From Terebella lapidaria (taxonomy: Eukaryota; Annelida; Polychaeta; Terebellida; Terebellidae), in assembly GCA_949152475.1 (NCBI GenBank), contig OX424570.1, forward strand, positions 7,428,181-7,492,180: a DNA stretch of 64,000 nucleotides, given 5' to 3'. Positions 39,551 through 55,014 of this stretch are shown here, piece by piece. The position numbers were made by a program, and so were the translations under genes. Below the pieces are notes generated by a model. The model did not search any database. It worked only from the letters and a program-made list of their open reading frames with translations, and had not been told where the DNA came from. How positions within the stretch are numbered: position 1 is the stretch's first letter; every line of letters starts with the position of its first letter.

Positions 39551-40250
39551 CGGCCGTTTTCGTTGAAAAATGGGCAATTTTGGACTTTGACGGTCGTTTT
39601 CTCAAAATCTGTTCAGTAACTTTTTTTCTTATTGATGCATAACACTCCTCATATGTACCCCTGTGACATGTATAAATTTCGTTGCCCTTGAATTGCTCCA
39701 AGTGGGCCATTTTGGGCCCAAACTCGGCCCAAATGGGACTTTCCAATGTTAACTTCTCCGATACTTTATAATGCGACACATTAAGCCTAATATCTCACTT
39801 AATATTGAGATTAGAGACTAGGAATCAATTGTGGACATATATGAAATGTTATATGATGAATATTCTCGTGACCTTGAATTTGACCTCTGACCTCGGTTTC
39901 AAGGTCATAGCGGCCGTTCTCGTCGAAAATGGCTAATTTTGGACTTTGATGGTCGTTTTCTCAAAATCTGTTCAGTAACTTTTTTTCTTATTGATGCATA
40001 ATACTCCTCATATGTACTTCTGTGGCATGTATAAATTTCGTTGCGCTTGAATCACTCGAAGTGGGCCATTTTGGGCCCAAACTCGGCCCAGATGTGACTT
40101 TCCCATGTCAAATTTTCCTATGGTTCATAATGGGACACATTAAGCGTAATATCTCACTTAATATTGAGATTAGGGACTAGGAATCAATTGTGGACATATA
40201 GGAAATGATATATGCGGAATATTCTCGTGACCTTGAATTTGACCTTTGAC
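39551..40250 (+). repeat. Two 360-bp tandem units
   Basis: The word CGGCCGTT at 39551 returns at 39911, followed in both by GGTCGTTTTCTCAAAATCTG, TTCTTATTGATGCATAA and GTGGGCCATTTTGGGCCC. The second unit leads into the 134-bp array. Identity is about 90 percent by eye. Non-coding. Confidence 0.75.
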
Positions 40251-40256
40251 CTCATT

Positions 40257-40748
40257 TTCAAGGTCACAGGACAAAATGGCTAATATCTCGCTTATTATCG
40301 ACTTTACAGCTTAGAAATCAATTGTGAACATATAGGAAATGATATATGCTGAATATTCTCGTGACCTTGAATCTGACCTTTGACCTCATTTTCAAGGTCA
40401 CAGGACAAAATGGCTAATATCTCACTTATTATCGACTTTACAGCTTAGAAATCAATTGTGAACATATAGGAAATGATATATGCTGAATATTCTCAAGACC
40501 TTGAATTTGACCTTTGACCTCATTTCCAAAGTCACAGGACAAAATTGCTAATATCTCGCTTATTATCGACTTTACGGCTTAGGAATCTATTGTGAACATA
40601 TAGGAAATGATATATACTGAATATTCTCGTGACCTTGAATTTAACCTTTGACCTCATTTTCAAGGTCACAGGACAAAATGGCCAATATCTTGCTTATTAG
40701 CGACTTTGCAGCTTAGGAATCAATTGTGAACATATAGGAAATGATATT
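40257..40748 (+). repeat. 134-bp satellite array with nuclear-receptor-type motifs
   Basis: Units start at 40257, 40391, 40525 and 40659, an exact 134-bp period; the last is cut by the LINE insertion at about 40748. Most units carry, within 40 bp, GACCTTGAA, TGACCTTTGACCT and TTCAAGGTCA. The middle word is a direct repeat of AGGTCA with one-base spacing (DR1) and the outer ones fit extended half sites used by NR5A/ERR-type receptors. Regulatory use is inference; satellite conservation by concerted copying would give the same picture. Confidence 0.8.
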
Positions 40749-40810
40749 GTTGTTCACCCTGTACACTGCTACCTTGGGTACACTGATCCGCGACTGACAT
40801 CTGCTACCAC

Positions 40811-41638
40811 ATGTATGCGGATGACACGCAACTGTATGAAACGTGTCATCCTTCCGCAGTTCCAGCTGCCATTGAGAGGCTTGAACACTGTGCACGTCAA
40901 ATCAGCTCCTGGATGTTGTCTAACCAGTTAAAACTAAATCAGTCCAAAACTGAGTTCATTCTCTTGGGCTCGAAACACAATATTGCCTCATTACCTACTA
41001 CCACCATTTGCATAGGTGACTGTACCATAAAGCCATCTCAAATTGTCAAAAACCTCGGCGTCTTGATGGACAGTGAGTTGTCCATGGTCCCACAGATAAA
41101 GTCCATATGCAGATCAAGTATGATGCATATCCGTCACCTGGGAAAAATCAGACCATTCCTGACGAAAGAAGCGGCATGCAGCTTGTCCCACTCATTGGTC
41201 ACCTGTCGGATCGATATCAACAACGCTCTGCTGTACGGCGTCGGCCAGGTTCATCTTAACCTGTTGCAAAAGGTTCAAAACACTGCTGCGAGCAGACGTG
41301 TTCACATAACTCCTATACTACGAGAGCTTCACTGGCTGCCAGTGAGGCAACGTATTGAGTATAAGTTGTTGCTCCTGGCTCGCAAGGCTCATCTCAGTGG
41401 ACCTTCATATCTGCAGGACCTCATACCTGTGTACAGACCAGTCCGGTCTCTACGTTCCCGCGACGAGAAAGTACTATCGGTGCCTCAGTCAAGAACTAAA
41501 TCCTATGGTGATAGAGTGTTTAGTGTCTCTGCACCTAAACTTTTCAATGACTTGCCTATCGATCTCCGCACCTGTGAATCTCTCGATGTCTACAAACGAC
41601 ATCTAAAAACTCTCTTATATAGAAAATGTTTTGTCTAG
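40811..41638 (+). pseudogene. LINE reverse transcriptase C-terminal fragment
   Basis: The 275-residue frame begins MYADDTQLY, the RT catalytic motif, followed by LKLNQSKTEFILLG, KNLGVLMDSELS, HIRHLGKIRPFL, LRELHWLPVRQRIEYKLL and the C-terminal signature FSVSAPKLFNDLP with KRHLKTLLYRK. These blocks in this order are typical of the L2/CR1 group of the Jockey superfamily. Upstream coding sequence (FTLYTATLGTLI) continues in a different frame, so one frame slip lies just before YHMYADD near 40795. Relative to family members a few residues are missing near QNTAAS. The endonuclease and fingers are absent because of 5' truncation. Confidence 0.85.
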
Positions 41639-41760
41639 GTCATTCTATATTATCATGTAGTTATTATTATCTTGTGTAGGTAATGGGCTTTTAACATTTA
41701 ACATTGTAAGGCGCTTTGAGCCTAATCTTCTGGTAAAAGCGCGGTATAAATGTGTAACAT

Positions 41761-41804
41761 GTATGTATGTATGTATGTATGTATGTATGTATGTATGTAT
41801 GTAT
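41761..41804 (+). repeat. (GTAT)n microsatellite
   Basis: Eleven GTAT units form the tail of the LINE and directly abut the 3' end of Penelope-like unit 1. Either the Penelope-like array inserted into the LINE tail, or the tail was extended by that event. Confidence 0.9.
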
Positions 41805-41913
41805 GTTTTGGAGAGAATAAAAAATGCACTGGCACAAGATAATTGTAAGAGTAACACATAACATAAAACAGCAATAAAAATTCAATGAGCGACATTGAAC
41901 AAATTTTGTTGGA

Positions 41914-44205
41914 TTATTTAAGTCTGCTTCTGACTAAAAGTTCTTTAAGGTTTTGATGCTTCTTGTAAGCTGTTGCTATTTTAATATCACCATCAGTATT
42001 TTTGTTGAGTTGTTTCATATGCTTTTTAACAATTTGGGCCGAAAGAGCACCTGTTTTTGAGAAGGGTACTATATACACCAGGTCGAATTTATTTTTACTT
42101 TTGTTCAAAGGGTCATACTTTGTAAATTTTTGAACGTTGAGGCCATGAGGTTCGAAAGTGCCTAGAGTGTCAATCCAACAATATTCCCTTTCAAGTCGCC
42201 ATTGTTTGTTTAAAAGTTCATCACCAAGATCGGAAACCTGTTCAATTGGTAAAAGAGAAAAACATTCGATGGAAAATTCAGTTTTGCTGTGAAATTTAGA
42301 TAGATGACTGTATAATGCATTTTCCTCATTGCAGCTAGTTATTGCAGCACGGTGACGATTGTTTCTGAATTTGAGTGACTTACCGGTTTCACCTACGTAT
42401 TGTTTTTCGCAAAGCTTACAAGTGTATAGATAAATTATATTTTCTGAGTTGCAATCCAAAGCTGAGTTGATTGAGTAGGTTTGTTCAAAAACTGATCCTG
42501 AGAAATTTTGACAATTTGGAACTAAATGACATGTCTGATGACATTGTCTAGAATTACAAGGTTTTGAGCCAGATGAGCTGGAAGTGGGCAATTGAAAATC
42601 AGCACCTAGTCTTTCCTCACTGTTTAGAATTCTCAATGTTTCATTCTTTATTTTGCGAAGCCAACGTTTTGAATAGTTACGTTTCGAAAGTGCCTTGAAT
42701 AATGTTTTGCAAGCTGATTCAACATCATCTGGATATGAGCAAATTTGGAAAAATCGAAAAACTTGGGACTTGATTAGTCCTTTATAAGTGTGCTTTGGAT
42801 GAAAAGAGAGCTTATGCAGCAACTGATGAGTATCCGTTGGTTTGAAGAAAACTTTTGCTTCTAAAGTGTTTTCTTTGCTCCTGAACAAAGTAGTATCCAG
42901 AAAATTAACTGAATCAGTACTAATTTCAGCTTTGAACTTGATTGATGTCCTATGAGAATTGAATATTTCGAGAAACTGATTAAATTTGGAAATGCCATGT
43001 GGCCAAATGAGGAAAATGTCATCTAAATACCTATAATAGCAATCTGGTTGGAATGGACACTTTTGCAATGCTTGCTTTTCAAATTCAGCCATATATATAT
43101 CTGCATAATGAGGTGCATATTTCTGACCCATGGCTGTACCTGAAACTTGTAGGAATGTCTTACCGTCAAATTCAAAGTCATTACATTTAAGTGAAATTTC
43201 CAATAATTCTATTATACCTTTGAATAGTTCATTGTTTTTCAGAGTCGGGAATGCATTTTTAAGTGCTTGGATACCTTCTTCGTGATTTATATTAGTATAC
43301 ATACTTTCAACATCTAAAGTGATTAGTAAAGAATTTGGATCTAGTTCAAGCCCTCTAACTTTATCTAAAAAGTCATACGTGTTTTTTATATATGACGGAT
43401 GCTTATTTGCTTGATCTTTTATATATGAATCAATATACATAGCTACTTTTTCAGATTCACTGCTGCAGTCAGAAACAATTGGGCGCCCTGGAGGCATTAC
43501 ATTTGGAATTGGCCAGGAGTCTTTGGGTTTATGAATTTTAGGTAGCATATAAAATCTTCTTTGACGAGGGCGTTCTGGTGGTAAAAGAAATTGGAATACT
43601 TTTTCAGAAAGGCATCCAGAACTGCGTAATCCTTTTAAAATTTTTGTTATTTTTTCTGAATTTTCTAGGTAAAGGGGAGTGTCAATTTCTCTGTAATGAG
43701 CTGGATTGTATAATTGACGAAGGCCTTCATTAATATAATTTTGCCTATCCATAATTACGACTGCACTACCTTTATCTGCTTTTTTGATTACCAAGTCTAC
43801 GTTATTTTGTAAATCCTTTATAGTTTTATATTCCATTTTCGTTAGGTTTTTGGTTTCTGGTTGAATTTTCAGATTTTCAATTTCTTTAGATATTGCCGAA
43901 ATGCAATCTAAAACAGGCTTGTCAATCATGGAACTGGGTGGAGTCCAGGTAGATTTTGGAGTGAATTTTGATCTATTTGTAAATGAATTTGGACGGTGAG
44001 AAAAATAATTATGAAGTTTGAGTTTTCTACCAAAATCTTGCACAGCTTGTTCAATTGGATCCAATGTTATTTTGGGTGTGGGAACAAATGTCAAACCACG
44101 ATTTAGAAGAGCGATTTGTGTGTCCGAAAGTGTAAATTTGGAAAGGTTTACAACATTATTAGTCGTACTGGAGTTCGGTGGACTCTCAGAATTATTTAGT
44201 TTAAA
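41914..44205 (-). CDS. Penelope-like reverse transcriptase with GIY-YIG endonuclease (ORF2, unit 1)
   Basis: Copies element RNA into DNA and nicks the target. The conserved N-terminal block LLNRGLTFVPTP lies upstream of the first in-frame ATG, so translation must enter from ORF1, probably by -1 frameshifting at 44199-44205. Numbering from TFVPTP: KADKGSAVV about 106-113, RFYMLPKIHKP about 180-190, motif A LDVESMYTNI about 260-269, motif B GTAMGQKYAP about 319-328, motif C YLDD about 356-359, then the LSFHPKHTYKG block. A Cys-rich segment (PCNSRQC) precedes the endonuclease: IIYLYTCKLCEKQYVGETG about 553-571, R and H after it, the catalytic-region Glu in LEREYCWID and the terminal GLN. All core residues look present. 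It is nearly identical to units 2 and 3, differing by small in-frame changes. Confidence 0.92.
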   Translation of the reverse strand, partial: FKLNNSESPPNSSTTNNVVNLSKFTLSDTQIALLNRGLTFVPTPKITLDPIEQAVQDFGRKLKLHNYFSHRPNSFTNRSKFTPKSTWTPPSSMIDKPVLDCISAISKEIENLKIQPETKNLTKMEYKTIKDLQNNVDLVIKKADKGSAVVIMDRQNYINEGLRQLYNPAHYREIDTPLYLENSEKITKILKGLRSSGCLSEKVFQFLLPPERPRQRRFYMLPKIHKPKDSWPIPNVMPPGRPIVSDCSSESEKVAMYIDSYIKDQANKHPSYIKNTYDFLDKVRGLELDPNSLLITLDVESMYTNINHEEGIQALKNAFPTLKNNELFKGIIELLEISLKCNDFEFDGKTFLQVSGTAMGQKYAPHYADIYMAEFEKQALQKCPFQPDCYYRYLDDIFLIWPHGISKFNQFLEIFNSHRTSIKFKAEISTDSVNFLDTTLFRSKENTLEAKVFFKPTDTHQLLHKLSFHPKHTYKGLIKSQVFRFFQICSYPDDVESACKTLFKALSKRNYSKRWLRKIKNETLRILNSEERLGADFQLPTSSSSGSKPCNSRQCHQTCHLVPNCQNFSGSVFEQTYSINSALDCNSENIIYLYTCKLCEKQYVGETGKSLKFRNNRHRAAITSCNEENALYSHLSKFHSKTEFSIECFSLLPIEQVSDLGDELLNKQWRLEREYCWIDTLGTFEPHGLNVQKFTKYDPLNKSKNKFDLVYIVPFSKTGALSAQIVKKHMKQLNKNTDGDIKIATAYKKHQNLKELLVRSRLK
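44196..44205 (-). promoter_or_regulatory. Putative -1 frameshift site UUUAAAC-UAA (unit 1)
   Basis: In the ORF1 frame the message reads CA-U UUA AAC UAA, which is the X-XXY-YYZ slippery heptamer UUUAAAC followed at once by the ORF1 stop. Slipping back one base gives UUU AAA CUA AAU, exactly the ORF2 frame. Here ORF1 is interrupted upstream by a LINE fragment, so in this unit the site is uncoupled. I see no strong downstream pseudoknot by eye. Confidence 0.7.
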
Positions 44206-44277
44206 TGACTGAGCCAGAATTTCAACATTTCATTGGCCGTTTGTTCAGTCCAATGAATGTTATCTGGTTGTGTAGAG

Positions 44278-44566
44278 TTTGATTTATTTGATTTATTTGG
44301 TAAATCCATATACAGTAAAAGTAGAATACTGACACATGAATATACGAGGATAACACAAGAAAGTCTCAAAGAGACTTATTTACATTGTGGTCCTCCAAAA
44401 TAAGATAACGAGGAAAAATGGTGTATATGCAAAGGAGAACATAAAATGAAATATAAGTTTTGTAAACAAATAATAATAAATTAAAACAAAAAAAAAACAA
44501 AAACAAAAAAAAAACGAAAAAAAAATTAGAAGAATTTGTACACATTATTTGGATTTTTTTTGATAG
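44278..44566 (-). mobile_element. 289-bp LINE 3'-end fragment inserted in Penelope-like unit 1
   Basis: Units 2 and 3 read straight through TAGAGAACTTGATAGG, whereas unit 1 has 289 extra bases here. On the minus strand the insert runs from T/A-rich DNA through GGAGGACCACAATGTAAATAAG and TTTGAGACTT to a tail of AAATAAATCAAATAAATCAAA-like repeats. That pattern is typical of a LINE 3' UTR and tail. Only a 2-bp direct repeat (AG) flanks it. It cuts off the last part of ORF1, including the DxxH block of the SGNH domain. Confidence 0.6.
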
Positions 44567-46032
44567 AACTTGATAGGATCCAACTGTTTAACAACTGTGA
44601 GATTGCTGAAACGTGAAATCATGTCATCCAAAGCCCTGTTAATCATATCCAAGTTGCGTTTCTCTACAGACGGAAGATTGTCTGAGTAGTTAATTTTTGG
44701 AATAAGAATTTTGGAGTGGGGGAAGATTCGGAAAGCAGAGCTGAGCATATTCCTCAGCTCTGGAATTGAAGTAACACTTGGTTTGGAGCTTCGATTGTTC
44801 AGGCCAACACTTAAGATTAAGTTTTTGGGGGCATCAAATGACTTTTTACAGGCCGTGAACATCATTCTGAGATGGTTGAACAAAGCTCCAGGATAAGACA
44901 CAACTTGGATATCACTGACGGGGGATTTGGTGATGCGAGAGAGGTTAGAAGAGCCGAGGACGACAGTGGTGGAGGTTAGTTTAGGAAGGGCCCAAAGAGT
45001 TTTGGGCCCTCTGATAGTGGAAGGAGATACATGGAAAGTGGTGTTAGGAGAGTTTTTAGGAGAGGCAAAGCGAGAGCGTTTGCCTTTAGGTAGAGAGGAG
45101 GGTGAGAGTTCAGGAGAAGAAGGAGAGCGCAGACGCCGTTTGGGCGTGGCACTAAGGCGGTTATCAGGAGAAGAGCGAGAGAGAGGTGGCCAATCATCAG
45201 ATGATGAGAGGCAAGGAGGATTAGAGAGAGTGTCAAGGAGTTGGAAGCGGTTAGAAGTGGACACAGAGGGAAGGGTTTTAGGGAGGGTGTTATTTGAGGA
45301 TGGAGGTATAGAGCGAGAGGGTTTAGTATTGTTAGTAGGAGAGTTGGCACGTTTTAGGTCCATTAGGAGGCGGCCAAAGAAGTTAGAGCCTTGACCATGA
45401 CGATTAACACCCCAGTGGCTGTCAGGAACTGGATGGACAATGTGACACCCTTCAGGTAGACCCATCAGAGTGTCACGGAACAATTTGCAAGAATTAAACT
45501 TAACTTGAAGAAGTTGACGCATGATTCCATTTTTACTTTTATGCCAGAACGGGGACAGGCTAGGAATTTCACTAGCCAAACGTTTAGCCACTCCTGCATG
45601 GGGAGCCCTAAGGATCCGATTGGCTAGGTGTTGACAGTCATGGTACCGGGCTTTGTGATACTGATAGATGTGCTCAAGGCTAGGGAATCTCATACCACGA
45701 TAGGATATAATACATGGGAAGAAATTACTAAGTGGGTGTTTGTGACCTTTAACCTCACAAGTCTGAGGTTTTGATTGAGAGGTAGAATTTGGAATAGGGG
45801 AATTTGAAAGAGTGGAGCTTTTGAATTTCTGGATGGTGGAAGCCTGAAGTTTTTTGCCGAAATGAGATTTAGCCTGCTGAATGACGAGAGCTACCGAATT
45901 TGCAATGTCCGAATCAGATAAACCTAAAGAGGAAATGTGGACCAAAAGGTTTTGAATTGAGCTCTCGTAGTGTTCCACCAATTGTTCGGTCACGTTTTGT
46001 ACCCAATTTTGATTGATTTTGGAGATGTTTGA
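44545..46032 (-). CDS. NADAR-SGNH protein (ORF1, unit 1; C-terminus replaced)
   Basis: About 480 residues. An N-terminal helical segment is followed by a NADAR domain (about residues 86-214, counting from TEQLVE as 2-7) with HPLSNFFPC, SLEHIYQYHKA, HKSKNGIMRQLLQVKF and DSHWGVNRHGQGSNFFGRLL. These are the family's hallmark blocks, including the Glu of the E-x-x-YQ-x-x-KA motif. NADAR proteins remove ADP-ribose from nucleobases or use related NAD-derived substrates. A Ser/Pro-rich linker with basic patches (PKRRLRS, PKGKRSR) leads to an SGNH/GDSL-like domain from about 343: VVLGSSNLSRI (block I, GSS in place of GDS), SYPGALFNHL, and ILSVGLNN (block III). The end here reads KFYQKKSK because of the LINE fragment. 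No ATG precedes the NADAR domain in this frame, which opens at 46032. Function within the element is unknown. Confidence 0.8.
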   Translation of the reverse strand, partial: SNISKINQNWVQNVTEQLVEHYESSIQNLLVHISSLGLSDSDIANSVALVIQQAKSHFGKKLQASTIQKFKSSTLSNSPIPNSTSQSKPQTCEVKGHKHPLSNFFPCIISYRGMRFPSLEHIYQYHKARYHDCQHLANRILRAPHAGVAKRLASEIPSLSPFWHKSKNGIMRQLLQVKFNSCKLFRDTLMGLPEGCHIVHPVPDSHWGVNRHGQGSNFFGRLLMDLKRANSPTNNTKPSRSIPPSSNNTLPKTLPSVSTSNRFQLLDTLSNPPCLSSSDDWPPLSRSSPDNRLSATPKRRLRSPSSPELSPSSLPKGKRSRFASPKNSPNTTFHVSPSTIRGPKTLWALPKLTSTTVVLGSSNLSRITKSPVSDIQVVSYPGALFNHLRMMFTACKKSFDAPKNLILSVGLNNRSSKPSVTSIPELRNMLSSAFRIFPHSKILIPKINYSDNLPSVEKRNLDMINRALDDMISRFSNLTVVKQLDPIKFYQKKSK

Positions 46033-46201
46033 TCAGAGGACCAGAACAAGCAGGTTTGATGAAGTCATCCAGGTGTTGTTGTTTTTTACTGAAAGCCCTG
46101 GTGACTTGGCCTTGAGACTGCTGGAGCATTAGTGAAAGATGGTGAAAGCATTGAAGAAGAGTGTAAAAAGAACGGAAGTGAGGAGGTTTGGAAAGAGCCA
46201 T
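45914..46201 (-). CDS. Short leading ORF of the Penelope-like element (ORF0, unit 1)
   Basis: This 95-residue frame starts at ATG 46201 in a good initiation context (ATCATGG) with MALSKPPHFRSFY, contains a Gln-rich helical stretch and overlaps the open ORF1 frame by about 119 nt. ORF1 lies in the +1 frame relative to it. Since ORF1 lacks an AUG of its own, ORF0 may supply the start through a +1 or -2 shift or an alternative splice, or it may be a regulatory upstream ORF. I recognise no domain. The frame is conserved unchanged in unit 2, but near-identity of the units makes that weak evidence. Confidence 0.5.
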   Translation of the reverse strand: MALSKPPHFRSFYTLLQCFHHLSLMLQQSQGQVTRAFSKKQQHLDDFIKPACSGPLIKHLQNQSKLGTKRDRTIGGTLRELNSKPFGPHFLFRFI

Positions 46202-46411
46202 GATACGTTTCAGCAATTAATTTTGAAAGTATTAAAACCAGAACGTAATTGATTTGGATGATAAAACCGAAGGATAAAATTATAAAAATAAAAACAATTG
46301 TATAAAATGGAAACAAAACGTTTGAAGAAGCCTGAAGGCAAAGATATGGTCAATAATCTGACCAGATCTAAAACAAAACAAAATAATACAAAACAATATA
46401 AAAAAACGGTT

Positions 46412-46510
46412 ACTCACAATGTACTCTGCCTGTTGCACGACCGGTTTCGGAGTTGAATCCTTTGTCAAGTGCTGAAGTCTAAAGAACCTACTGTGGTTGC
46501 AGTATTTATA
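46412..46510 (-). promoter_or_regulatory. 5' control region: TATA box, hammerhead-like motif, splice-donor-like site (unit 1)
   Basis: Reading on the minus strand: CCTATAAATAC (TATA box, about 46503-46511); then about 40 nt on, a hammerhead-like core at 46469-46441 with CTTGACAAA, a short GGA/TCC stem, and GAAAC; then GTGAGT (first base 46417), a good 5' splice site. Penelope-like elements are known to carry small hammerhead ribozymes and, unusually, introns. The first core strand deviates from CUGAUGA, so self-cleavage is doubtful. A plausible acceptor follows a pyrimidine tract near 46105. Confidence 0.5.
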
Positions 46511-46537
46511 GGAAATATTGGCTTGTGCCAATGTCAA

Positions 46538-47000
46538 TTTTGTTTGAGTAAATCAATTAACAGTTTTCCAATGGTTGAGCAAATCAATTAGCAGTTTTCA
46601 GAACAGTTTGCCAAGAGAAGTGACATATGTTGAGTATAGATAATTAACAGTTAATGAATTCAATTGTTTTTGATATGCGTATCTGACACTGAGTAAAACA
46701 ATTAGCAGTTAGTTGATTGACAAACATAATTAACGTTTGAAGTTATATTTTCTGAAGTATGCTAAAATAAGTAATTTTCAAAATGGTATTACTGCGGTGC
46801 TTTCCAGCAATAGATTCTTAGGCAGAGATTTTATTAGGCATGAAATTGTTTTTTGAAACTGAAGATGTGTCAAATTGACTTGCATTGCTTCAGGAGACTT
46901 CAAATAAAATGAGATGAAATAAAAACAAAATGAACTGAAAAACAAAATATTTATAAAATGTGTTTTGACCCTTACAATATGCTAGGCACGGGCTAAGTAT
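46538..47000 (-). other. Non-coding 5' leader of unit 1 up to the unit 1/unit 2 junction
   Basis: AT-rich sequence upstream of the TATA box containing repeated CAATTAGCAGTT/CAATTAACAG words. It ends at the head-to-tail junction with the 3' end of unit 2, at GTTTTGGAGAG (47001). No coding frame. Because the units are in tandem, the 3' end of the upstream unit lies directly ahead of this promoter. Confidence 0.6.
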
Positions 47001-47109
47001 GTTTTGGAGAGAATAAAAAATGCACTGGCACAAGATGATTGTAAGAGTAACACATAACATAAAACAGCAATAAAAATTCAATGAGCGACATTGAACAAAT
47101 TTTGTTGGA

Positions 47110-49383
47110 TTATTTAAGTCTGCTTCTGACTAAAAGTTCTTTAAGGTTTTGATGCTTTTTGTAAGCTGTTGCTATTTTAATATCACCATCAGTATTTTTG
47201 TTGAGTTGTTTCATATGCTTTTTAACAATTTGGGCCGAAAGAGCACCTGTTTTTGAGAAGGGTACTATATACACCAGGTCGAATTTATTTTTACTTTTGT
47301 TCAAAGGGTCATACTTTGTAAATTTTTGAACGTTGAGGCCATGAGGTTCGAAAGTGCCTAGAGTGTCAATCCAACAATATTCCCTTTCAAGTCGCCATTG
47401 TTTGTTTAAAAGTTCATCACCAAGATCGGAAACCTGTTCAATTGGTAAAAGAGAAAAACATTCGATGGAAAATTCAGTTTTGCTGTGAAATTTAGATAGA
47501 TGACTGTATAATGCATTTTCCTCATTGCAGCTAGTTATTGCAGCACGGTGACGATTGTTTCTGAATTTGAGTGACTTACCGGTTTCACCTACGTATTGTT
47601 TTTCGCAAAGCTTACAAGTGTATAGATAAATTATATTTTCTGAGTTGCAATCCAAAGCTGAGTTGATTGAGTAGGTTTGTTCAAAAACTGATCCTGAGAA
47701 ATTTTGACAATTTGGAACTAAATGACATGTCTGACATTGTCTAGAATTACAAGGTTTTGAGCCAGATGAGCTGGAAGTGGGCAATTGAAAATCAGCACCT
47801 AGTCTTTCCTCACTGTTTAGAATTCTCAATGTTTCATTCTTTATTTTGCGAAGCCAACGTTTCGAAAGTGCCTTGAATAATGTTTTGCAAGCTGATTCAA
47901 CATCATCTGGATATGAGCAAATTTGGAAAAATCGAAAAACTTGGGACTTGATTAGTCCTTTATAAGTGTGCTTTGGATGAAAAGAGAGCTTATGCAGCAA
48001 CTGATGAGTATCCGTTGGTTTGAAGAAAACTTTTGCTTCTAAAGTGTTTTCTTTGCTCCTGAACAAAGTAGTATCCAGAAAATTAACTGAATCAGTACTA
48101 ATTTCAGCTTTGAACTTGATTGATGTCCTATGAGAATTGAATATTTCGAGAAACTGATTAAATTTGGAAATGCCATGTGGCCAAATGAGGAAAATGTCAT
48201 CTAAATACCTATAATAGCAATCTGGTTGGAATGGACACTTTTGCAATGCTTGCTTTTCAAATTCAGCCATATATATATCTGCATAATGAGGTGCATATTT
48301 CTGACCCATGGCTGTACCTGAAACTTGTAGGAATGTCTTACCGTCAAATTCAAAGTCATTACATTTAAGTGAAATTTCCAATAATTCTATTATACCTTTG
48401 AATAGTTCATTGTTTTTCAGAGTCGGGAATGCATTTTTAAGTGCTTGGATACCTTCTTCGTGATTTATATTAGTATACATACTTTCAACATCTAAAGTGA
48501 TTAGTAAAGAATTTGGATCTAGTTCAAGCCCTCTAAATTTATCTAAAAAGTCATACGTGTTTTTTATATATGACGGATGCTTATTTGCTTGATCTTTTAT
48601 ATATGAATCAATATACATAGCTACTTTTTCAGATTCACTGCTGCAGTCAGAAACAATTGGGCGCCCTGGAGGCGTTACATTTGGAATTGGCCAGGAGTCT
48701 TTGGGTTTATGAATTTTAGGTAGCATATAAAATCTTCTTTGACGAGGGCGTTCTGGTGGTAAAAGAAATTGGAATACTTTTTCAGAAAGGCATCCAGAAC
48801 TGCGTAATCCTTTTAAAATTTTTGTTATTTTTTCTGAATTTTCTAGGTAAAGGGGAGTGTCAATTTCTCTGTAATGAGCTGGATTGTATAATTGACGAAG
48901 GCCTTCATTAATATAATTTTGCCTATCCATAATTACGACTGCACTACCTTTATCTGCTTTTTTGATTACCAAGTCTACGTTATTTTGTAAATCCTTTATA
49001 GTTTTATATTCCATTTTCGTTAGGTTTTTGGTTTCTGGTTGAATTTTCAGATTTTCAATTTCTTTAGATATTGCCGAAATGCAATCTAAAACAGGCTTGT
49101 CAATCATGGAACTGGGTGGAGTCCAGGTAGATTTTGGAGTGAATTTTGATCTATTTGTAAATGAATTTGGACGGTGAGAAAAATAATTATGAAGTTTGAG
49201 TTTTCTACCAAAATCTTGCACAGCTTGTTCAATTGGATCCAATGTTATTTTGGGTGTGGGAACAAATGTCAAACCACGATTTAGAAGAGCGATTTGTGTG
49301 TCCGAAAGTGTAAATTTGGAAAGGTTTACAACATTATTAGTCGTACTGGAGTTCGGTGGACTCTCAGAATGATTTAGTTTAAA
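47110..49383 (-). CDS. Penelope-like reverse transcriptase with GIY-YIG endonuclease (ORF2, unit 2)
   Basis: It is six residues shorter than the unit 1 copy, lacking a NYSK-containing stretch between RT and endonuclease plus small changes near the Cys-rich segment (RQCQTC). RT motifs A (LDVESMYTNI), B (GTAMGQKYAP) and C (RYLDDIFLIW), and the endonuclease blocks YVGETGKSLKFR and REYCWID are intact. Two substitutions distinguish it from unit 1: DKFRGLE for DKVRGLE and VTPPGR for VMPPGR. Entry is presumed by -1 frameshift at 49377-49383. This copy could encode an active enzyme; activity is inferred only from motif integrity. Confidence 0.92.
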   Translation of the reverse strand, partial: FKLNHSESPPNSSTTNNVVNLSKFTLSDTQIALLNRGLTFVPTPKITLDPIEQAVQDFGRKLKLHNYFSHRPNSFTNRSKFTPKSTWTPPSSMIDKPVLDCISAISKEIENLKIQPETKNLTKMEYKTIKDLQNNVDLVIKKADKGSAVVIMDRQNYINEGLRQLYNPAHYREIDTPLYLENSEKITKILKGLRSSGCLSEKVFQFLLPPERPRQRRFYMLPKIHKPKDSWPIPNVTPPGRPIVSDCSSESEKVAMYIDSYIKDQANKHPSYIKNTYDFLDKFRGLELDPNSLLITLDVESMYTNINHEEGIQALKNAFPTLKNNELFKGIIELLEISLKCNDFEFDGKTFLQVSGTAMGQKYAPHYADIYMAEFEKQALQKCPFQPDCYYRYLDDIFLIWPHGISKFNQFLEIFNSHRTSIKFKAEISTDSVNFLDTTLFRSKENTLEAKVFFKPTDTHQLLHKLSFHPKHTYKGLIKSQVFRFFQICSYPDDVESACKTLFKALSKRWLRKIKNETLRILNSEERLGADFQLPTSSSSGSKPCNSRQCQTCHLVPNCQNFSGSVFEQTYSINSALDCNSENIIYLYTCKLCEKQYVGETGKSLKFRNNRHRAAITSCNEENALYSHLSKFHSKTEFSIECFSLLPIEQVSDLGDELLNKQWRLEREYCWIDTLGTFEPHGLNVQKFTKYDPLNKSKNKFDLVYIVPFSKTGALSAQIVKKHMKQLNKNTDGDIKIATAYKKHQNLKELLVRSRLK
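49374..49383 (-). promoter_or_regulatory. Putative -1 frameshift site UUUAAAC-UAA (unit 2)
   Basis: This has the same geometry as in the other units: ORF1 ends SHLN-stop, with the last two sense codons UUA AAC forming the slippery heptamer with the preceding U. The ORF2 frame opens only about 27 nt upstream of this point, so the overlap is minimal, as expected of a frameshift junction rather than an independent gene. Confidence 0.78.
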
Positions 49384-50920
49384 TGACTGAGCCAGAATTT
49401 CAACATTTCATTGGCCGTTTGTTCAGTCCAATGAATGTTATCTGGTTGTGTAGAGAACTTGATAGGATCCAACTGTTTAACAACTGTGAGATTGCTGAAA
49501 CGTGAAATCATGTCATCCAAAGCCCTGTTAATCATATCCAAGTTGCGTTTCTCTACAGACGGAAGATTGTCTGAGTAGTTAATTTTTGGAATAAGAATTT
49601 TGGAGTGGGGGAAGATTCGGAAAGCAGAGCTGAGCATATTCCTCAGCTCTGGAATTGAAGTAACACTTGGTTTGGAGCTTCGATTGTTCAGGCCAACACT
49701 TAAGATTAAGTTTTTGGGGGCATCAAATGACTTTTTACAGGCCGTGAACATCATTCTGAGATGGTTGAACAAAGCTCCAGGATAAGACACAACTTGGATA
49801 TCACTGACGGGGGATTTGGTGATGCGAGAGAGGTTAGAAGAGCCGAGGACGACAGTGGTGGAGGTTAGTTTAGGAAGGGCCCAAAGAGTTTTGGGCCCTC
49901 TGATAGTGGAAGGAGATACATGGAAAGTGGTGTTAGGAGAGTTTTTAGGAGAGGCAAAGCGAGAGCGTTTGCCTTTAGGTAGAGAGGAGGGTGAGAGTTC
50001 AGGAGAAGAAGGAGAGCGCAGACGCCGTTTGGGCGTGGCACTAAGGCGGTTATCAGGAGAAGAGCGAGAGAGAGGTGGCCAATCATCAGATGATGAGAGG
50101 CAAGGAGGATTAGAGAGAGTGTCAAGGAGTTGGAAGCGGTTAGAAGTGGACACAGAGGGAAGGGTTTTAGGGAGGGTGTTATTTGAGGATGGAGGTATAG
50201 AGCGAGAGGGTTTAGTATTGTTAGTAGGAGAGTTGGCACGTTTTAGGTCCATTAGGAGGCGGCCAAAGAAATTAGAGCCTTGACCATGACGATTAACACC
50301 CCAGTGGCTGTCAGGAACTGGATGGACAATGTGACACCCTTCAGGTAGACCCATCAGAGTGTCACGGAACAATTTGCAAGAATTAAACTTAACTTGAAGA
50401 AGTTGACGCATGATTCCATTTTTACTTTTATGCCAGAACGGGGACAGGCTAGGAATTTCACTAGCCAAACGTTTAGCCACTCCTGCATGGGGAGCCCTAA
50501 GGATCCGATTGGCTAGGTGTTGACAGTCATGGTACCGGGCTTTGTGATACTGATAGATGTGCTCAAGGCTAGGGATCTCATACCACGATAGGATATAATA
50601 CATGGGAAGAAATTACTAAGTGGGTGTTTGTGACCTTTAACCTCACAAGTCTGAGGTTTTGATTGAGAGGTAGAATTTGGAATAGGGGAATTTGAAAGAG
50701 TGGAGCTTTTGAATTTCTGGATGGTGGAAGCCTGAAGTTTTTTGCCGAAATGAGATTTAGCCTGCTGGATGACGACAGCTACCGAATTTGCAATGTCCGA
50801 ATCAGATAAACCTAAAGAGGAAATGTGGACCAAAAGGTTTTGAATTGAGCTCTCGTAGTGTTCCACCAATTGTTCGGTCACGTTTTGTACCCAATTTTGA
50901 TTGATTTTGGAGATGTTTGA
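49374..50920 (-). CDS. NADAR-SGNH protein (ORF1, unit 2; broken once)
   Basis: It contains the N-terminal helical segment, the NADAR blocks, the Ser/Pro-rich basic linker and a complete SGNH-like domain. Unlike unit 1, the C-terminus is native: after LDPIKF comes STQPDNIHWTEQTANEMLKF, supplying the DxxH block (DNIHW) expected of SGNH hydrolases, and the protein ends WLSHLN at the slippery site. The frame is broken once in the NADAR domain, so this copy yields no intact ORF1 product. In other retroelements SGNH-like esterase domains occur in CR1 LINE ORF1 and in some giant Penelope-like elements of rotifers, so this domain has precedent; NADAR is the unusual partner. Confidence 0.8.
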
Positions 50921-51089
50921 TCAGAGGACCAGAACAAGCAGGTTTGATGAAGTCATCCAGGTGTTGTTGTTTTTTACTGAAAGCCCTGGTGACTTGGCCT
51001 TGAGACTGCTGGAGCATTAGTGAAAGATGGTGAAAGCATTGAAGAAGAGTGTAAAAAGAACGGAAGTGAGGAGGTTTGGAAAGAGCCAT
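50802..51089 (-). CDS. Short leading ORF (ORF0, unit 2)
   Basis: It is identical in translation to the unit 1 copy (MALSKPPHFRSFY start, about 95 residues) and overlaps the ORF1 frame, which opens at about 50920. Role unknown: it may provide the translation start for ORF1 or act as an upstream regulatory ORF. Confidence 0.5.
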   Translation of the reverse strand: MALSKPPHFRSFYTLLQCFHHLSLMLQQSQGQVTRAFSKKQQHLDDFIKPACSGPLIKHLQNQSKLGTKRDRTIGGTLRELNSKPFGPHFLFRFI

Positions 51090-51300
51090 GATACGTTTCA
51101 GCAATTAATTTTGAAAGTATTAAAACCAGAACGTAATTGATTTGGATGATAAAACCGAAGGATAAAATTATAAAAATAAAAACAATTGTATAAAATGGAA
51201 ACAAAACGTTTGAAGAAGCCTGAAGGCAAAGATATGGTCAATAATCTGACCAGATCTAAAACAAAACAAAATAATACAAAACAATATAAAAAAACGGTTA

Positions 51301-51400
51301 CTCACAATGTACTCTGCCTGTTGCACGACCGGTTTCGGAGTTGAATCCTTTGTCAAGTGCTGAAGTCTAAGGAACCTACTGTGGTTGCAGTATTTATAGG
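51301..51400 (-). promoter_or_regulatory. 5' control region: TATA box, hammerhead-like motif, donor-like site (unit 2)
   Basis: TATAAATA at about 51391-51398 on the minus strand, hammerhead-like core at 51357-51329 and a GTGAGT donor-like site just beyond, in the same spacing as unit 1. The ribozyme-like core begins only a few bases past the start site predicted from the TATA box, so it would sit at the 5' end of the transcript, the position known for Penelope-like hammerheads. Confidence 0.5.
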
Positions 51401-51425
51401 AAATATTGGCTTGTGCCAATGTCAA

Positions 51426-51898
51426 TTTTGTTTGAGTAAATCAATTAACAGTTTTCCAATGGTTGAGCAAATCAATTAGCAGTTTTCAGAACAGTTTGCC
51501 AAGAGAAGTGACATATGTTGAGTATAGATAATTAACAGTTAATGAATTCAATTGTTTTTGATATGCGTATCTGACACTGAGTAAAACAATTAGCAGTTAG
51601 TTGATTGACAAACATAATTAACGTTTGAAGTTATATTTTCTGAAGTATGCTAAAATAAGTAATTTTCAAAATGGTATTACTGCGGTGCTTTCCAGCAATA
51701 GATTCTTAGGCAGAGATTTTATTAGGCATGAAATTGTTTTTTGAAACTGAAGATGTGTCAAATTGACTTGCATTGCTTCAGGAGACTTCAAATAAAATGA
51801 GATGAAATAAAAACAAAATGTACTAAAATGAACTGAAAAACAAAATATTTATAAAATGTGTTTTGACCCTTACAATATGCTAGGCACGGGCTAAGTAT
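51426..51898 (-). other. Non-coding 5' leader of unit 2 up to the unit 2/unit 3 junction
   Basis: This has the same sequence as the unit 1 leader apart from a 10-bp length difference near 51820. It contains no coding frame and ends at the junction with the unit 3 3' end at 51899. Confidence 0.6.
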
Positions 51899-52007: not shown

Positions 52008-54296
52008 TTATTTAAGTCTGCTTCTGACTAAAAGTTCTTTAAGGTTTTGATGCTTCTTGTAAGCTGTTGCTATTTTAATATCACCATCAGTATTTTTGTT
52101 GAGTTGTTTCATATGCTTTTTAACAATTTGGGCCGAAAGAGCACCTGTTTTTGAGAAGGGTACTATATACACCAGGTCGAATTTATTTTTACTTTTGTTC
52201 AAAGGGTCATACTTTGTAAATTTTTGAACGTTGAGGCCATGAGGTTCGAAAGTGCCTAGAGTGTCAATCCAACAATATTCCCTTTCAAGTCGCCATTGTT
52301 TGTTTAAAAGTTCATCACCAAGATCGGAAACCTGTTCAATTGGTAAAAGAGAAAAACATTCGATGGAAAATTCAGTTTTGCTGTGAAATTTAGATAGATG
52401 ACTGTATAATGCATTTTCCTCATTGCAGCTAGTTATTGCAGCACGGTGACGATTGTTTCTGAATTTGAGTGACTTACCGGTTTCACCTACGTATTGTTTT
52501 TCGCAAAGCTTACAAGTGTATAGATAAATTATATTTTCTGAGTTGCAATCCAAAGCTGAGTTGATTGAGTAGGTTTGTTCAAAAACTGATCCTGAGAAAT
52601 TTTGACAATTTGGAACTAAATGACATGTCTGACATTGTCTAGAATTACAAGGTTTTGAGCCAGATGAGCTGGAAGTGGGCAATTGAAAATCAGCACCTAG
52701 TCTTTCCTCACTGTTTAGAATTCTCAATGTTTCATTCTTTATTTTGCGAAGCCAACGTTTTGAATAGTTACGTTTCGAAAGTGCCTTGAATAATGTTTTG
52801 CAAGCTGATTCAACATCATCTGGATATGAGCAAATTTGGAAAAATCGAAAAACTTGGGACTTGATTAGTCCTTTATAAGTGTGCTTTGGATGAAAAGAGA
52901 GCTTATGCAGCAACTGATGAGTATCCGTTGGTTTGAAGAAAACTTTTGCTTCTAAAGTGTTTTCTTTGCTCCTGAACAAAGTAGTATCCAGAAAATTAAC
53001 TGAATCAGTACTAATTTCAGCTTTGAACTTGATTGATGTCCTATGAGAATTGAATATTTCGAGAAACTGATTAAATTTGGAAATGCCATGTGGCCAAATG
53101 AGGAAAATGTCATCTAAATACCAATAATAGCAATCTGGTTGGAATGGACACTTTTGCAATGCTTGCTTTTCAAATTCAGCCATATATATATCTGCATAAT
53201 GAGGTGCATATTTCTGACCCATGGCTGTACCTGAAACTTGTAGGAATGTCTTACCGTCAAATTCAAAGTCATTACATTTAAGTGAAATTTCCAATAATTC
53301 TATTATACCTTTGAATAGTTCATTGTTTTTCAGAGTCGGGAATGCATTTTTAAGTGCTTGGATACCTTCTTCGTGATTTATATTAGTATACATACTTTCA
53401 ACATCTAAAGTGATTAGTAAAGAATTTGGATCTAGTTCAAGCCCTCTAACTTTATCTAAAAAGTCATACGTGTTTTTTATATATGACGGATGCTTATTTG
53501 CTTGATCTTTTATATATGAATCAATATACATAGCTACTTTTTCAGATTCACTGCTGCAGTCAGAAACAATTGGGCGCCCTGGAGGCATTACATTTGGAAT
53601 TGGCCAGGAGTCTTTGGGTTTATGAATTTTAGGTAGCATATAAAATCTTCTTTGACGAGGGCGTTCTGGTGGTAAAAGAAATTGGAATACTTTTTCAGAA
53701 AGGCATCCAGAACTGCGTAATCCTTTTAAAATTTTTGTTATTTTTTCTGAATTTTCTAGGTAAAGGGGAGTGTCAATTTCTCTGTAATGAGCTGGATTGT
53801 ATAATTGACGAAGGCCTTCATTAATATAATTTTGCCTATCCATAATTACGACTGCACTACCTTTATCTGCTTTTTTGATTACCAAGTCTACGTTATTTTG
53901 TAAATCCTTTATAGTTTTATATTCCATTTTCGTTAGGTTTTTGGTTTCTGGTTGAATTTTCAGATTTTCAATTTCTTTAGATATTGCCGAAATGCAATCT
54001 AAAACAGGCTTGTCAATCATGGAACTGGGTGGAGTCCAGGTAGATTTTGGAGTGAATTTTGATCTATTTGTAAATGAATTTGGACGGTGAGAAAAATAAT
54101 TATGAAGTTTGAGTTTTCTACCAAAATCTTGCACAGCTTGTTCAATTGGATCCAATGTTATTTTGGGTGTGGGAACAAATGTCAAACCACGATTTAGAAG
54201 AGCGATTTGTGTGTCCGAAAGTGTAAATTTGGAAAGGTTTACAACATTATTAGTCGTACTGGAGTTCGGTGGACTCTCAGAATGATTTAGTTTAAA
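52008..54296 (-). CDS. Penelope-like reverse transcriptase with GIY-YIG endonuclease (ORF2, unit 3)
   Basis: The 725-residue part after TFVPTP keeps the NYSK stretch and has the RQCQTC form of the Cys-rich segment. Motif C reads YWYLDD instead of YRYLDD; the catalytic aspartates are unchanged. GIY-YIG endonuclease blocks are intact. There is no promoter because the unit is 5'-truncated, so expression would depend on readthrough. Confidence 0.92.
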   Translation of the reverse strand, partial: FKLNHSESPPNSSTTNNVVNLSKFTLSDTQIALLNRGLTFVPTPKITLDPIEQAVQDFGRKLKLHNYFSHRPNSFTNRSKFTPKSTWTPPSSMIDKPVLDCISAISKEIENLKIQPETKNLTKMEYKTIKDLQNNVDLVIKKADKGSAVVIMDRQNYINEGLRQLYNPAHYREIDTPLYLENSEKITKILKGLRSSGCLSEKVFQFLLPPERPRQRRFYMLPKIHKPKDSWPIPNVMPPGRPIVSDCSSESEKVAMYIDSYIKDQANKHPSYIKNTYDFLDKVRGLELDPNSLLITLDVESMYTNINHEEGIQALKNAFPTLKNNELFKGIIELLEISLKCNDFEFDGKTFLQVSGTAMGQKYAPHYADIYMAEFEKQALQKCPFQPDCYYWYLDDIFLIWPHGISKFNQFLEIFNSHRTSIKFKAEISTDSVNFLDTTLFRSKENTLEAKVFFKPTDTHQLLHKLSFHPKHTYKGLIKSQVFRFFQICSYPDDVESACKTLFKALSKRNYSKRWLRKIKNETLRILNSEERLGADFQLPTSSSSGSKPCNSRQCQTCHLVPNCQNFSGSVFEQTYSINSALDCNSENIIYLYTCKLCEKQYVGETGKSLKFRNNRHRAAITSCNEENALYSHLSKFHSKTEFSIECFSLLPIEQVSDLGDELLNKQWRLEREYCWIDTLGTFEPHGLNVQKFTKYDPLNKSKNKFDLVYIVPFSKTGALSAQIVKKHMKQLNKNTDGDIKIATAYKKHQNLKELLVRSRLK
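54287..54296 (-). promoter_or_regulatory. Putative -1 frameshift site UUUAAAC-UAA (unit 3)
   Basis: This is the third copy of the slippery heptamer with an adjacent UAA stop at the ORF1/ORF2 junction, in the same frame relation. Confidence 0.75.
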
Positions 54297-54819
54297 TGAC
54301 TGAGCCAGAATTTCAACATTTCATTGGCCGTTTGTTCAGTCCAATGAATGTTATCTGGTTGTGTAGAGAACTTGATAGGATCCAACTGTTTAACAACTGT
54401 GAGATTGCTGAAACGTGAAATCATGTCATCCAAAGCCCTGTTAATCATATCCAAGTTGCGTTTCTCTACAGACGGAAGATTGTCTGAGTAGTTAATTTTT
54501 GGAATAAGAATTTGGGAGTGGGGGAAGATTCGGAAAGCAGAGCTGAGCATATTCCTCAGCTCTGGAATTGAAGTAACACTTGGTTTGGAGCTTCGATTGT
54601 TCAGGCCAACACTTAAGATTAAGTTTTTGGGGGCATCAAATGACTTTTTAAAGGCCGTGAACATCATTCTGAGATGGTTGAACAAAGCTCCAGGATAAGA
54701 CACAACTTGGATATCACTGACGGGGGATTTGGTGATGCGAGAGAGGTTAGAAGAGCCGAGGACGACAGTGGTGGAGGTTAGTTTAGGAAGGGCCCAAAGA
54801 GTTTTGGGCCCTCTGATAG
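54287..54819 (-). pseudogene. ORF1 C-terminal fragment (SGNH-like domain only, unit 3)
   Basis: The frame enters at the 5' truncation point within RGPKTLWALPKL and covers the SGNH-like domain: VVLGSSNLSRI, SYPGALFNHL, SVGLNN and DNIHWTEQ, ending WLSHLN. The NADAR domain and linker are missing because of truncation. Small substitutions distinguish it from units 1 and 2 (for example TAFKKS for TACKKS). Confidence 0.8.
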
Positions 54820-55014
54820 GTTAGTCATTTTATTTTCAAGGTCAGAATACAAAATGGCTTAGATCTCGCTTATTATCAAATTTACAGCTTAGGGGTCCAT
54901 AGTGAACATATAGGAAATGATGTATGCTGAATATTTTGGTGATCTAGAATTTGACCTTTGATCTCATTTTCAAGGTCAGAGAACAAAATGGCTAATATAT
55001 CGCTTATTATCATC
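54820..55014 (+). repeat. 134-bp satellite, right-hand part
   Basis: Two diverged satellite units resume after the Penelope-like array, with TTTTCAAGGTCA, ATCTCGCTTATTATC, TTTACAGCTTAGG and AACATATAGGAAATGAT words matching 40257-40748. This joins the two sides of the interrupted inverted-repeat element. About 40 bp of a unit is missing at the junction, so the nested insertions involved a small target deletion. Confidence 0.75.

What the first reader, a model, noticed from the sequence alone, without database searches (positions are those of the whole stretch)
44545..50920. Penelope-like element whose ORF1 fuses a NADAR domain to an SGNH/GDSL-like domain
Seen: NADAR hallmark blocks (HPLSNFFPC, SLEHIYQYHKA, DSHWGVNRHG, SNFFGRLLM) and SGNH-like blocks (VVLGSSNLS, SVGLNN, DNIHWT) in one reading frame directly upstream of a Penelope RT/GIY-YIG ORF, in two units plus a truncated third. 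Known: NADAR proteins act as ADP-ribosyl N-glycosidases in some toxin-antitoxin and NAD-linked systems, and SGNH esterases occur in CR1 ORF1 and rotifer giant Penelope-like elements. Inferred: the element may carry its own enzyme to remove ADP-ribose from nucleic acid or NAD-derived marks, possibly countering host PARP-type defence or modifying its own RNP. I know of no description of this combination.
Basis: partly seen in the sequence, partly recalled or inferred. Interest (0 to 1): 0.92.

Follow-up and report, generated by a model that had tools for sequence, protein, structure and literature searches.

The report
Jumping gene with ADP-ribose-removing domain
A family of Penelope-type jumping genes in this eukaryote carries its own enzyme-like domain, of a kind known to strip ADP-ribose off DNA bases, next to an esterase-like domain, and relatives elsewhere keep both, so it may show how jumping genes resist a chemical defence of their hosts.

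Summary
The window holds three head-to-tail copies of a Penelope-like element (minus strand). ORF1 joins an N-terminal domain, a NADAR domain (Pfam E 5.9e-16) and an SGNH esterase-like domain; ORF2 is RT plus GIY-YIG. Window ORF1s are broken, but other copies in the genome are intact.

All 16 NADAR-bearing rows keep the E and K needed for guanine-ADPr hydrolysis and have His at the third catalytic place, as in T4 gp30.3, reported active. NADAR has the lowest nonsynonymous/synonymous ratio in ORF1 (small counts).

New here: ORF1 and ORF2 overlap at TTTAAAC plus stop, kept in both frames among many relatives, so ORF2 is probably made by -1 frameshifting as an ORF1-RT fusion.

In print already: NADAR in Gypsy Pol and Tx1 ORF1; SGNH in some Penelope-like elements. 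The combination I did not find in the library searched. Activity and a counter-defence role remain inference. Structure prediction could not be completed.

The parts
41914..44229 (-). ORF2 of copy 1: reverse transcriptase + GIY-YIG (771 aa open frame, first Met only at residue 101)
44199..44205 (-). TTTAAAC slippery heptamer of copy 1, followed by the ORF1 stop TAA
44277..44565 (-). about 290-bp insert with a CAAATAAAT-like tail interrupting the SGNH part of copy 1 (edges +-5)
44566..45009 (-). SGNH/GDSL-like domain of copy 1, C-terminal part cut off by the insert
   Evidence: place; family-level homology
45349..45780 (-). NADAR domain of copy 1 (E, K, H catalytic positions kept)
44545..46032 (-). 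main ORF1 frame of copy 1 (part of N-terminal domain, NADAR, linker, SGNH)
46033..46201 (-). start of ORF1 of copy 1 from ATG 46201, in another frame in this copy; relatives have both parts in one frame
46202..46993 (-). 5' leader / repeat-like region between copies 1 and 2, with a GT...AG intron-like stretch 46417-46368
   Evidence: motif positions; intron reading is inference
47110..49407 (-). ORF2 of copy 2: RT + GIY-YIG (765 aa)
49377..49383 (-). TTTAAAC slippery heptamer of copy 2, followed by the ORF1 stop TAA
49374..50612 (-). main ORF1 frame of copy 2 (most of NADAR, linker, complete SGNH)
50238..50668 (-). NADAR domain region of copy 2, one-base length difference near 50573
50613..51089 (-). 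upstream part of ORF1 of copy 2 (ATG at 51089), out of frame with the rest
51090..51891 (-). leader / repeat-like region between copies 2 and 3, intron-like stretch 51305-51256
   Evidence: motif positions; intron reading is inference
52008..54320 (-). ORF2 of copy 3 (770 aa), query for the genome and protein searches
54290..54296 (-). TTTAAAC slippery heptamer of copy 3
54287..54820 (-). ORF1 remnant of copy 3: SGNH part only, 5'-truncated

Best explanation
A young two-ORF Penelope-like retroelement. ORF1 is a Gag-like RNP protein with an N-terminal domain, a NADAR domain and a retrotransposon-type SGNH esterase domain. Some ribosomes probably slip -1 at TTTAAAC just before the ORF1 stop and make an ORF1-RT-GIY-YIG fusion, so both enzyme-like modules travel with the RT on the element RNA. 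The NADAR most likely acts as an ADP-ribosyl-guanine glycosidase (or on a closely similar ADP-ribose conjugate), cleaning the element's RNA, cDNA or RNP of ADP-ribose put on by host ADP-ribosyltransferases; the SGNH domain probably tethers the RNP to membranes, as proposed for LINE esterases. Shown: anatomy, domain homology, conservation of catalytic positions, constraint, dual-frame conservation of the slip site. Inferred: activity, substrate, host opponent, frameshifting in vivo.
For: NADAR homology. 16 of 16 NADAR-bearing ORF1s keep E, K and H at the catalytic columns; T4 gp30.3 has the same H; W and G of the following DxxWG are invariant too. Phage NADAR is among the four types reported to hydrolyse guanosine-ADPr in vitro (PMC11125620, passages); E88 and K95 are essential in E. 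coli C7 NADAR (PMC11543638, passages). NADAR has the lowest nonsyn/syn ratio in ORF1: 0.10 (6 nonsyn, 17 syn) against N-term 0.16, SGNH 0.25, linker 0.48, over 24 distinct copies. In P0012 and P0014 the SGNH Ser and His are replaced while NADAR residues stay. ORF1 and RT apparently on one contig in 4 other lineages. In an animal, a NADAR protein (SNA-3 of C. elegans) is tied to RNP function and needs its catalytic-type residues (PMC9303266, passages). Frameshift: TTTAAAC in 3 of 3 window copies and 30 of 30 genome loci; in the window ORF2s no Met before residue 101, past the conserved N-terminal motif; FKL in 23 of 33 ORF2 relatives long enough to tell; ORF1 ends LN in 18 of 26; both testable same-contig pairs fit one shared overlap, control 32 of 450.
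Against: No assay, no structure model. The Asp before the conserved W is kept in only 14 of 16 (C in P0004, H in P0008). His at the third place is rare elsewhere (2 of 71 viral-contig rows), gp30.3 is a very long branch and does not group with the PLE rows, and YbiA and phage NADARs did not rescue cells from DarT1 (PMC11125620), so the substrate in vivo may not be guanine-ADPr in DNA. No DarT family match in this genome; 32 PARP-type matches exist, some on contigs that look foreign, with no link to the element. No significant stem-loop after the slip site (z -1.04, 26 of 200 shuffles as good). 8 of 33 ORF2 relatives lack FK, and some relatives (P0043, P0045, P0046) have an upstream start in the ORF2 frame. 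N-term and NADAR constraint differ by few changes.
Confidence: 0.55

Rival explanations
1. The NADAR domain is a non-catalytic or binding module: it holds ADP-ribosylated RNA, NAD-capped RNA or protein and helps build the RNP, without cutting.
For: ORF1 proteins are usually structural (recalled); the SGNH domain of the same protein has lost catalytic residues in P0012 and P0014, so retroelement enzyme domains can become structural; the catalytic Glu of YbiA is His in 16 of 16; the Asp is not invariant (14 of 16).
Against: E, K and H kept in 16 of 16 rows; phage NADARs, which bear this His, are reported active in vitro; low nonsyn/syn ratio.
Confidence: 0.2
2. The NADAR acts on small NAD-derived molecules (cyclic ADP-ribose-type signals, RNA-repair by-products or riboflavin intermediates) rather than on the element's nucleic acid.
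For: TIGR02464, riboflavin-intermediate N-glycosidase, is the best NCBIfam model for P0001 although below its cut-off (62.4 vs 73.7 bits); PMC9503650 proposes soluble ADPr derivatives as targets of phage NADARs (passages).
Against: Place on an RNP protein and, by frameshift, on the RT keeps it at the nucleic acid (inference); the same paper favours macromolecular targets for NADARs of eukaryotic RNA viruses.
Confidence: 0.2
3. ORF2 is made by its own start, by splicing or by reinitiation, not by -1 frameshifting; the TTTAAAC is incidental.
For: No stable downstream structure; 8 of 33 relatives lack FK and some have an upstream start in the ORF2 frame.
Against: Chance of an in-frame TTTAAAC in an overlap of this length 0.0009, of any X XXY YYZ with Y=A/T 0.034; both frames keep it; no Met before residue 101 in the window ORF2s.
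Confidence: 0.15
4. Chance capture of a host or contaminant gene by one dying element.
For: All window ORF1 copies are broken.
Against: 15 NADAR-bearing relatives outside this genome's family; open, constrained ORF1s on many chromosomes.
Confidence: 0.02

Closest known systems
Tx1 LINEs of Crassostrea gigas and Gypsy elements of Ectocarpus with NADAR (PMC12477816, passages read)
   Same: A retroelement protein carries a YbiA-family NADAR domain; the authors suggest RNA processing.
   Different: LINE and LTR classes, not Penelope-like; the Tx1-type NADARs seen here keep Glu (5 of 5) where the PLE rows have His; the passages read name no SGNH partner and no ORF1-RT frameshift.
SGNH esterase ORF1 of CR1/L2 LINEs (ZfL2-1, PDB 4c1b) and of some Penelope-like elements (PMC3905857, passages)
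   Same: Same esterase family by profile (5.4e-9); the paper already says it occurs in Penelope-like elements.
   Different: No NADAR in the passages read; there coiled coil plus esterase, here an N-terminal domain shared with NADAR-less ORF1s and NADAR in between.
Terminons / Athena of bdelloid rotifers (PMC5408684, PMC6431247, passages)
   Same: Penelope-like RT with accessory GDSL ORFs; head-to-tail arrays.
   Different: Endonuclease-deficient RT, telomeric, several accessory ORFs; no NADAR in the passages read.
T4 gp30.3 and DarT-linked NADARs (PMC11125620, PMC11543638, passages)
   Same: Same domain family, same E and K; gp30.3 shares the His.
   Different: Stand-alone phage or toxin-antitoxin proteins; gp30.3 does not group with the PLE rows.
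SNA-3 of nematodes (PMC9303266, passages)
   Same: Animal NADAR domains on an RNP-associated protein, catalytic-type residues needed.
   Different: Host protein of SL1 trans-splicing with three NADARs, not mobile.

Membership tests
Penelope-like element (PLE) | RT of PLE type with C-terminal GIY-YIG endonuclease | tested here: met
   RVT_1 2.6e-11; GIY-YIG 18.8 bits, below Pfam cut-off 22.6; 40 of 120 listed homologs (of 1970 found) carry precomputed PF01541 by my count. No RT tree against named PLE clades was built.
Penelope-like element (PLE) | head-to-tail tandem copies with repeat-like (pLTR) ends | tested here: met
   three units, spacing about 4.9 kb; tandem hits about 4.9 kb apart on other chromosomes
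Penelope-like element (PLE) | hammerhead ribozyme in the terminal repeat (many, not all PLEs: recalled; also PMC6431247) | tested here: not met
   no Rfam hammerhead match at E<=1 or E<=10; no CTGANGA..GAAA core on the element strand, 3 on the opposite strand inside the three ORF2s, read as chance. Not a strict defining feature.
NADAR superfamily | profile match over cut-off | tested here: met
   59.6 bits vs 35.1; at E<=0.01 in 15 of 24 rows, the other 9 being the NADAR-less ones
NADAR superfamily | catalytic E, K and charged residue of the last strand | tested here: met
   E 16/16, K 16/16, H 16/16 in the column of YbiA Glu; alignment-based, no structure
NADAR superfamily | ADP-ribosyl-guanine hydrolysis | not testable with these tools
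   needs a bench assay
SGNH hydrolase | S, G, N, H in blocks I, II, III, V | tested here: met
   Ser in 22 of 25, Gly in 24 of 25, Asn in 24 of 25, His in 21 of 24 rows with that block (P0026 ends before it) (P0016 left out, SGNH part missing). Ser and His both replaced in P0012, P0014, P0025. The block-V Asp is often absent.
SGNH hydrolase | esterase activity | not testable with these tools
   needs a bench assay
-1 programmed frameshift gene pair | slippery heptamer in the overlap, conserved | tested here: met
   DNA seen only for this genome's family, for relatives inferred from both proteins
-1 programmed frameshift gene pair | stimulatory RNA structure 5-9 nt downstream | tested here: inconclusive
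   9-bp stem about 8 nt downstream, z -1.04

The most novel reading that the evidence does not exclude
Retroelements of at least three unrelated classes (Penelope-like, Tx1-like LINE, Gypsy) have taken up NADAR domains, twice together with an SGNH domain in this one genome, because their hosts carry a still unknown defence that ADP-ribosylates guanine in retroelement RNA or cDNA. The Penelope-like version is delivered both free and fused to the reverse transcriptase by frameshifting, as a built-in repair enzyme.
Probability: 0.25. Interest if true: 0.93.

Novelty: new variant of a known kind. Interest (0 to 1): 0.76.

Why it matters
The physiological role of animal and other eukaryotic NADARs is called unclear in PMC11125620 (passages); the one function I saw is SNA-3 in nematode trans-splicing (PMC9303266, passages). 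A mobile element that keeps the catalytic residues, on the protein that presumably packages its RNA, points to a substrate and makes it testable: retrotransposition with and without NADAR, in cells with and without given ADP-ribosyltransferases. It would place nucleic-acid ADP-ribosylation in the arms race between hosts and transposons. The frameshift would give Penelope-like elements a Gag-Pol-like expression strategy; I did not find one described (0 papers; 7 papers listed, passages of 2 of them looked at).

Tried and rejected
Led nowhere: hammerhead search; PLE ORF2 in viral contigs, 9 stretches, none confirmed; NADAR in genome contigs, 30 pattern matches, none confirmed, so the NADAR tree has no bacterial row but E. 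coli YbiA; ORF2 against solved structures, none; search of this genome with divergent ORF1s P0011 and P0014: identities and frame lengths of the listed matches fit the window's own family, so no second PLE family was separated; P0024 did not complete.

Considered and rejected: one-off capture. A shared origin of the PLE and Tx1-type NADARs is neither shown nor rejected (p-AU 0.54). NADAR-bearing ORF1s as one clade on a tree without NADAR columns: three label changes, p-AU 0.03; backbone weak and the N-terminal cut crude (rows P0008, P0016, P0026 left out), so I read it only as gain plus some losses.

A first alignment put the window's LPEG Glu at the YbiA Glu; the ungapped phmmer alignment to YbiA puts Val there and His one place on; the local-pair alignment of all rows and the one with gp30.3 put His there. 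I use the last; a structure would settle it.
Full report
What is there. The window lies in a genome of 762 Mb in 438 contigs (G000:C17:7428181-7492180; organism not named); eukaryotic by size and content (inference). On the minus strand at about 41.8-54.8 kb stand three head-to-tail copies of one element, spacing about 4.9 kb. Each has an ORF2 of 765-771 aa; the two that were scanned match RVT_1 and, below cut-off, GIY-YIG. Upstream is ORF1 with NADAR (E 5.9e-16) and an SGNH-like part. None of the three window ORF1s is intact. The genome search with ORF2 scored 58 of 2234 first-look candidates: all 58 are 98-100% identical, 3 have one stop inside. Of 30 loci cut out around ORF1, 27 gave a full ORF1 frame (567-573 aa), 24 of them distinct, pairwise nucleotide identity at least 0.963, median 0.985. 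So the family is young.

The fusion is conserved. Two protein searches gave 27 proteins. P0001 (96% to the window frame) is practically this genome's own element. P0027 has a different, Tx1-like ORF1 build with NADAR (by eye; NADAR). Of the other 25, 15 carry NADAR and 10 do not (P0011, P0018-P0026) but align over the N-terminal domain and SGNH. Pfam on 24 of these rows at E<=0.01: NADAR in 15, Lipase_GDSL_2 in 14. The profile of the 24 rows matches solved NADARs 2b3w (1.9e-17) and 8bau (2.9e-13) and the zebrafish LINE ORF1 esterase 4c1b (5.4e-9); the NADAR-less profile also finds 4c1b (1.1e-6). Four ORF1s have an RT homolog on a contig of the same source and length: P0002/P0034 (5762), P0003/P0035 (5375), P0004/P0032 (4805), P0008/P0039 (14721). 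That these are the same contigs is an inference; only 120 of 1970 RT hits were listed, so four is a lower bound, and for the other NADAR-bearing ORF1s the link to a PLE RT is not shown.

Catalytic residues. In a local-pair alignment of 16 PLE rows, the window, 5 Tx1-type rows, 71 viral-contig rows, T4 gp30.3 and E. coli YbiA, the E and K positions are kept in all 16 PLE rows. The third position (Glu in YbiA) is His in all 16 and in gp30.3; it is Glu in 5 of 5 Tx1-type rows; among viral-contig rows Glu 67, His 2, other 2. The Asp before the conserved Trp is kept in 14 of 16 PLE rows; one of 5 Tx1-type rows (L149) lacks the K. Published: E88, K95 and D171 of E. coli C7 NADAR are needed; the last is Glu in YbiA, Asp in BC4488-type and His in phage NADARs (PMC11543638, PMC11125620, passages). 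All four NADAR types tested, a phage one included, hydrolysed guanosine-ADPr in vitro, but YbiA and phage NADARs did not protect cells from DarT1. phrog_1017 gives P0001 91.8 bits, Pfam NADAR 59.7; different libraries, so only a hint of phage-like sequence.

Constraint. Distinct changes against the majority codon in 24 ORF1 copies: N-terminal 21 syn/12 nonsyn (ratio 0.16), NADAR 17/6 (0.10), linker 20/25 (0.48), SGNH 17/15 (0.25). Counts are small; NADAR and N-terminal do not differ much. The loci were chosen by similarity to P0011, which has no NADAR, so the choice should not favour conserved NADARs, though it does favour open frames. The exact NADAR E/K block is in 23 of 24, the His block in 24 of 24. 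In P0012 and P0014 the SGNH Ser and His are replaced while NADAR E, K, H stay.

History. The 16 PLE NADARs plus the window form one side of a branch (support 89/68, not strong; 88% of 200 bootstrap trees), with 36 of 71 viral-contig rows used; gp30.3 is a very long branch elsewhere, so the shared His may be convergent. A common origin with the Tx1-type NADARs is not rejected (p-AU 0.54). On a tree without NADAR columns the NADAR label needs three changes, compatible with one gain and losses; the backbone is weak.

How ORF2 is made. ORF1 ends CAT TTA AAC TAA; ORF2's open frame overlaps this end by 34 nt in the -1 frame, and its first Met is residue 101, after the conserved N-terminal motif. TTTAAAC is a classical -1 slip heptamer (recalled). 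It is in 3 of 3 window copies and 30 of 30 genome loci. Slipping there reads F-K-L. Of 120 listed ORF2 relatives, 23 lacked the landmark motif, 64 began too late, 33 could be judged: FKL 23, FK with another residue 2, neither 8; a few have an upstream start in this frame. ORF1 ends exactly in LN in 18 of 26 relatives (P0001-P0026). The two same-contig pairs that can be tested both fit one shared overlap containing TTTAAACTAA, and no other register from -3 to +3; mixed pairs fit in 32 of 450. Chance of this heptamer in such an overlap is 0.0009. A downstream stem is weak (z -1.04).

A parallel in the same genome. PF08719 gives 150 scored matches, all over the cut-off, of 973 candidates. Of the eight best that were cut out, seven, and one more (L149), carry a coiled-coil-like, L1-type ORF1 with NADAR at the C-terminus; in L002 only the NADAR part is open (the ORF1 typing apart from NADAR is by eye). 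In L149 a separate ORF after it matches Lipase_GDSL_2 at 2.8e-12, and an endonuclease-like ORF2 start follows (by eye; Pfam found nothing in its first 101 aa). So NADAR and SGNH occur together in two unrelated retroelements here. L001-L008 showed no other downstream frame of 120 aa or more within 1.5 kb (five of them looked at down to 45 aa), L153 nothing RT-like in 2.3 kb, L152 an endonuclease-like ORF about 1 kb on (by eye).

Mechanism. I read ORF1 as the RNP protein, SGNH as membrane tether (proposed for LINEs in PMC3905857, passages), and NADAR as an enzyme removing ADP-ribose from the element's nucleic acid, also present in the RT fusion. A NADAR protein of nematodes, SNA-3, works in RNP context and needs its catalytic-type residues (PMC9303266, passages), so an RNA-processing role is close to this reading. 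The genome has 32 PARP-type matches and no DarT match. The opponent is unknown.

Prior work. Full-text searches of the open-access library: NADAR with retrotransposon (104 papers, 20 listed, mostly other words beginning so), Penelope-like with GDSL, NADAR domain, NADAR with transposable element and ADP-ribose, 1 paper, Penelope with NADAR (8 papers, 7 unrelated by title), Penelope-like with ORF1 and frameshift, with GIY-YIG, with ribosomal frameshifting, 0 papers. The one paper I found joining NADAR to transposons is PMC12477816 (Gypsy and Tx1; passages). A PLE paper I recall as central (10.1093/molbev/msab225) is not held, most subscription journals are missing, and Repbase was not available, so prior mention of this combination is not excluded.

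Noticed in passing
L149 (G000:C4:24279500-24282500): Tx1-like LINE with NADAR at the C-terminus of ORF1 (K replaced by Q) and a separate GDSL/SGNH ORF (Lipase_GDSL_2 2.8e-12) before an endonuclease-like ORF2 start: a second NADAR + SGNH pairing in this genome.
   Followed up: partly
L001-L008: High-scoring NADAR copies (about 160-171 bits), seven of eight on L1-type ORF1-like proteins, with no frame of 120 aa or more within 1.5 kb downstream; possibly ORF1-only elements.
   Followed up: partly
P0012, P0014: ORF1 relatives whose SGNH Ser and His are both replaced (P0014: G, F; P0012: E, L) while the NADAR residues stay.
   Followed up: partly
G000:C433:620-1231, C318:6656-7262, C423:4066-4533: PARP matches with several in-frame TAA/TAG, as in ciliates with reassigned stops; possible contaminant contigs in the assembly.
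   Followed up: no
window 40178-40747 and 39550-40266: Tandem arrays of a 134-bp unit (4.3 copies) and a 359-bp unit (2 copies) next to the Penelope array.
   Followed up: no
window 40787-41638 (+): Reverse transcriptase fragment (RVT_1 9e-5, below cut-off) of another retroelement.
   Followed up: no
window 41759-41806: (ATGT)12 microsatellite right at the 3' end of the outermost Penelope copy.
   Followed up: no
window 17589-18581 (-): ORF of 331 aa with a DUF7869 match (3e-6).
   Followed up: no
L091 (viral contig): NADAR of a viral contig that groups next to the PLE NADARs (85/88, long branch).
   Followed up: no
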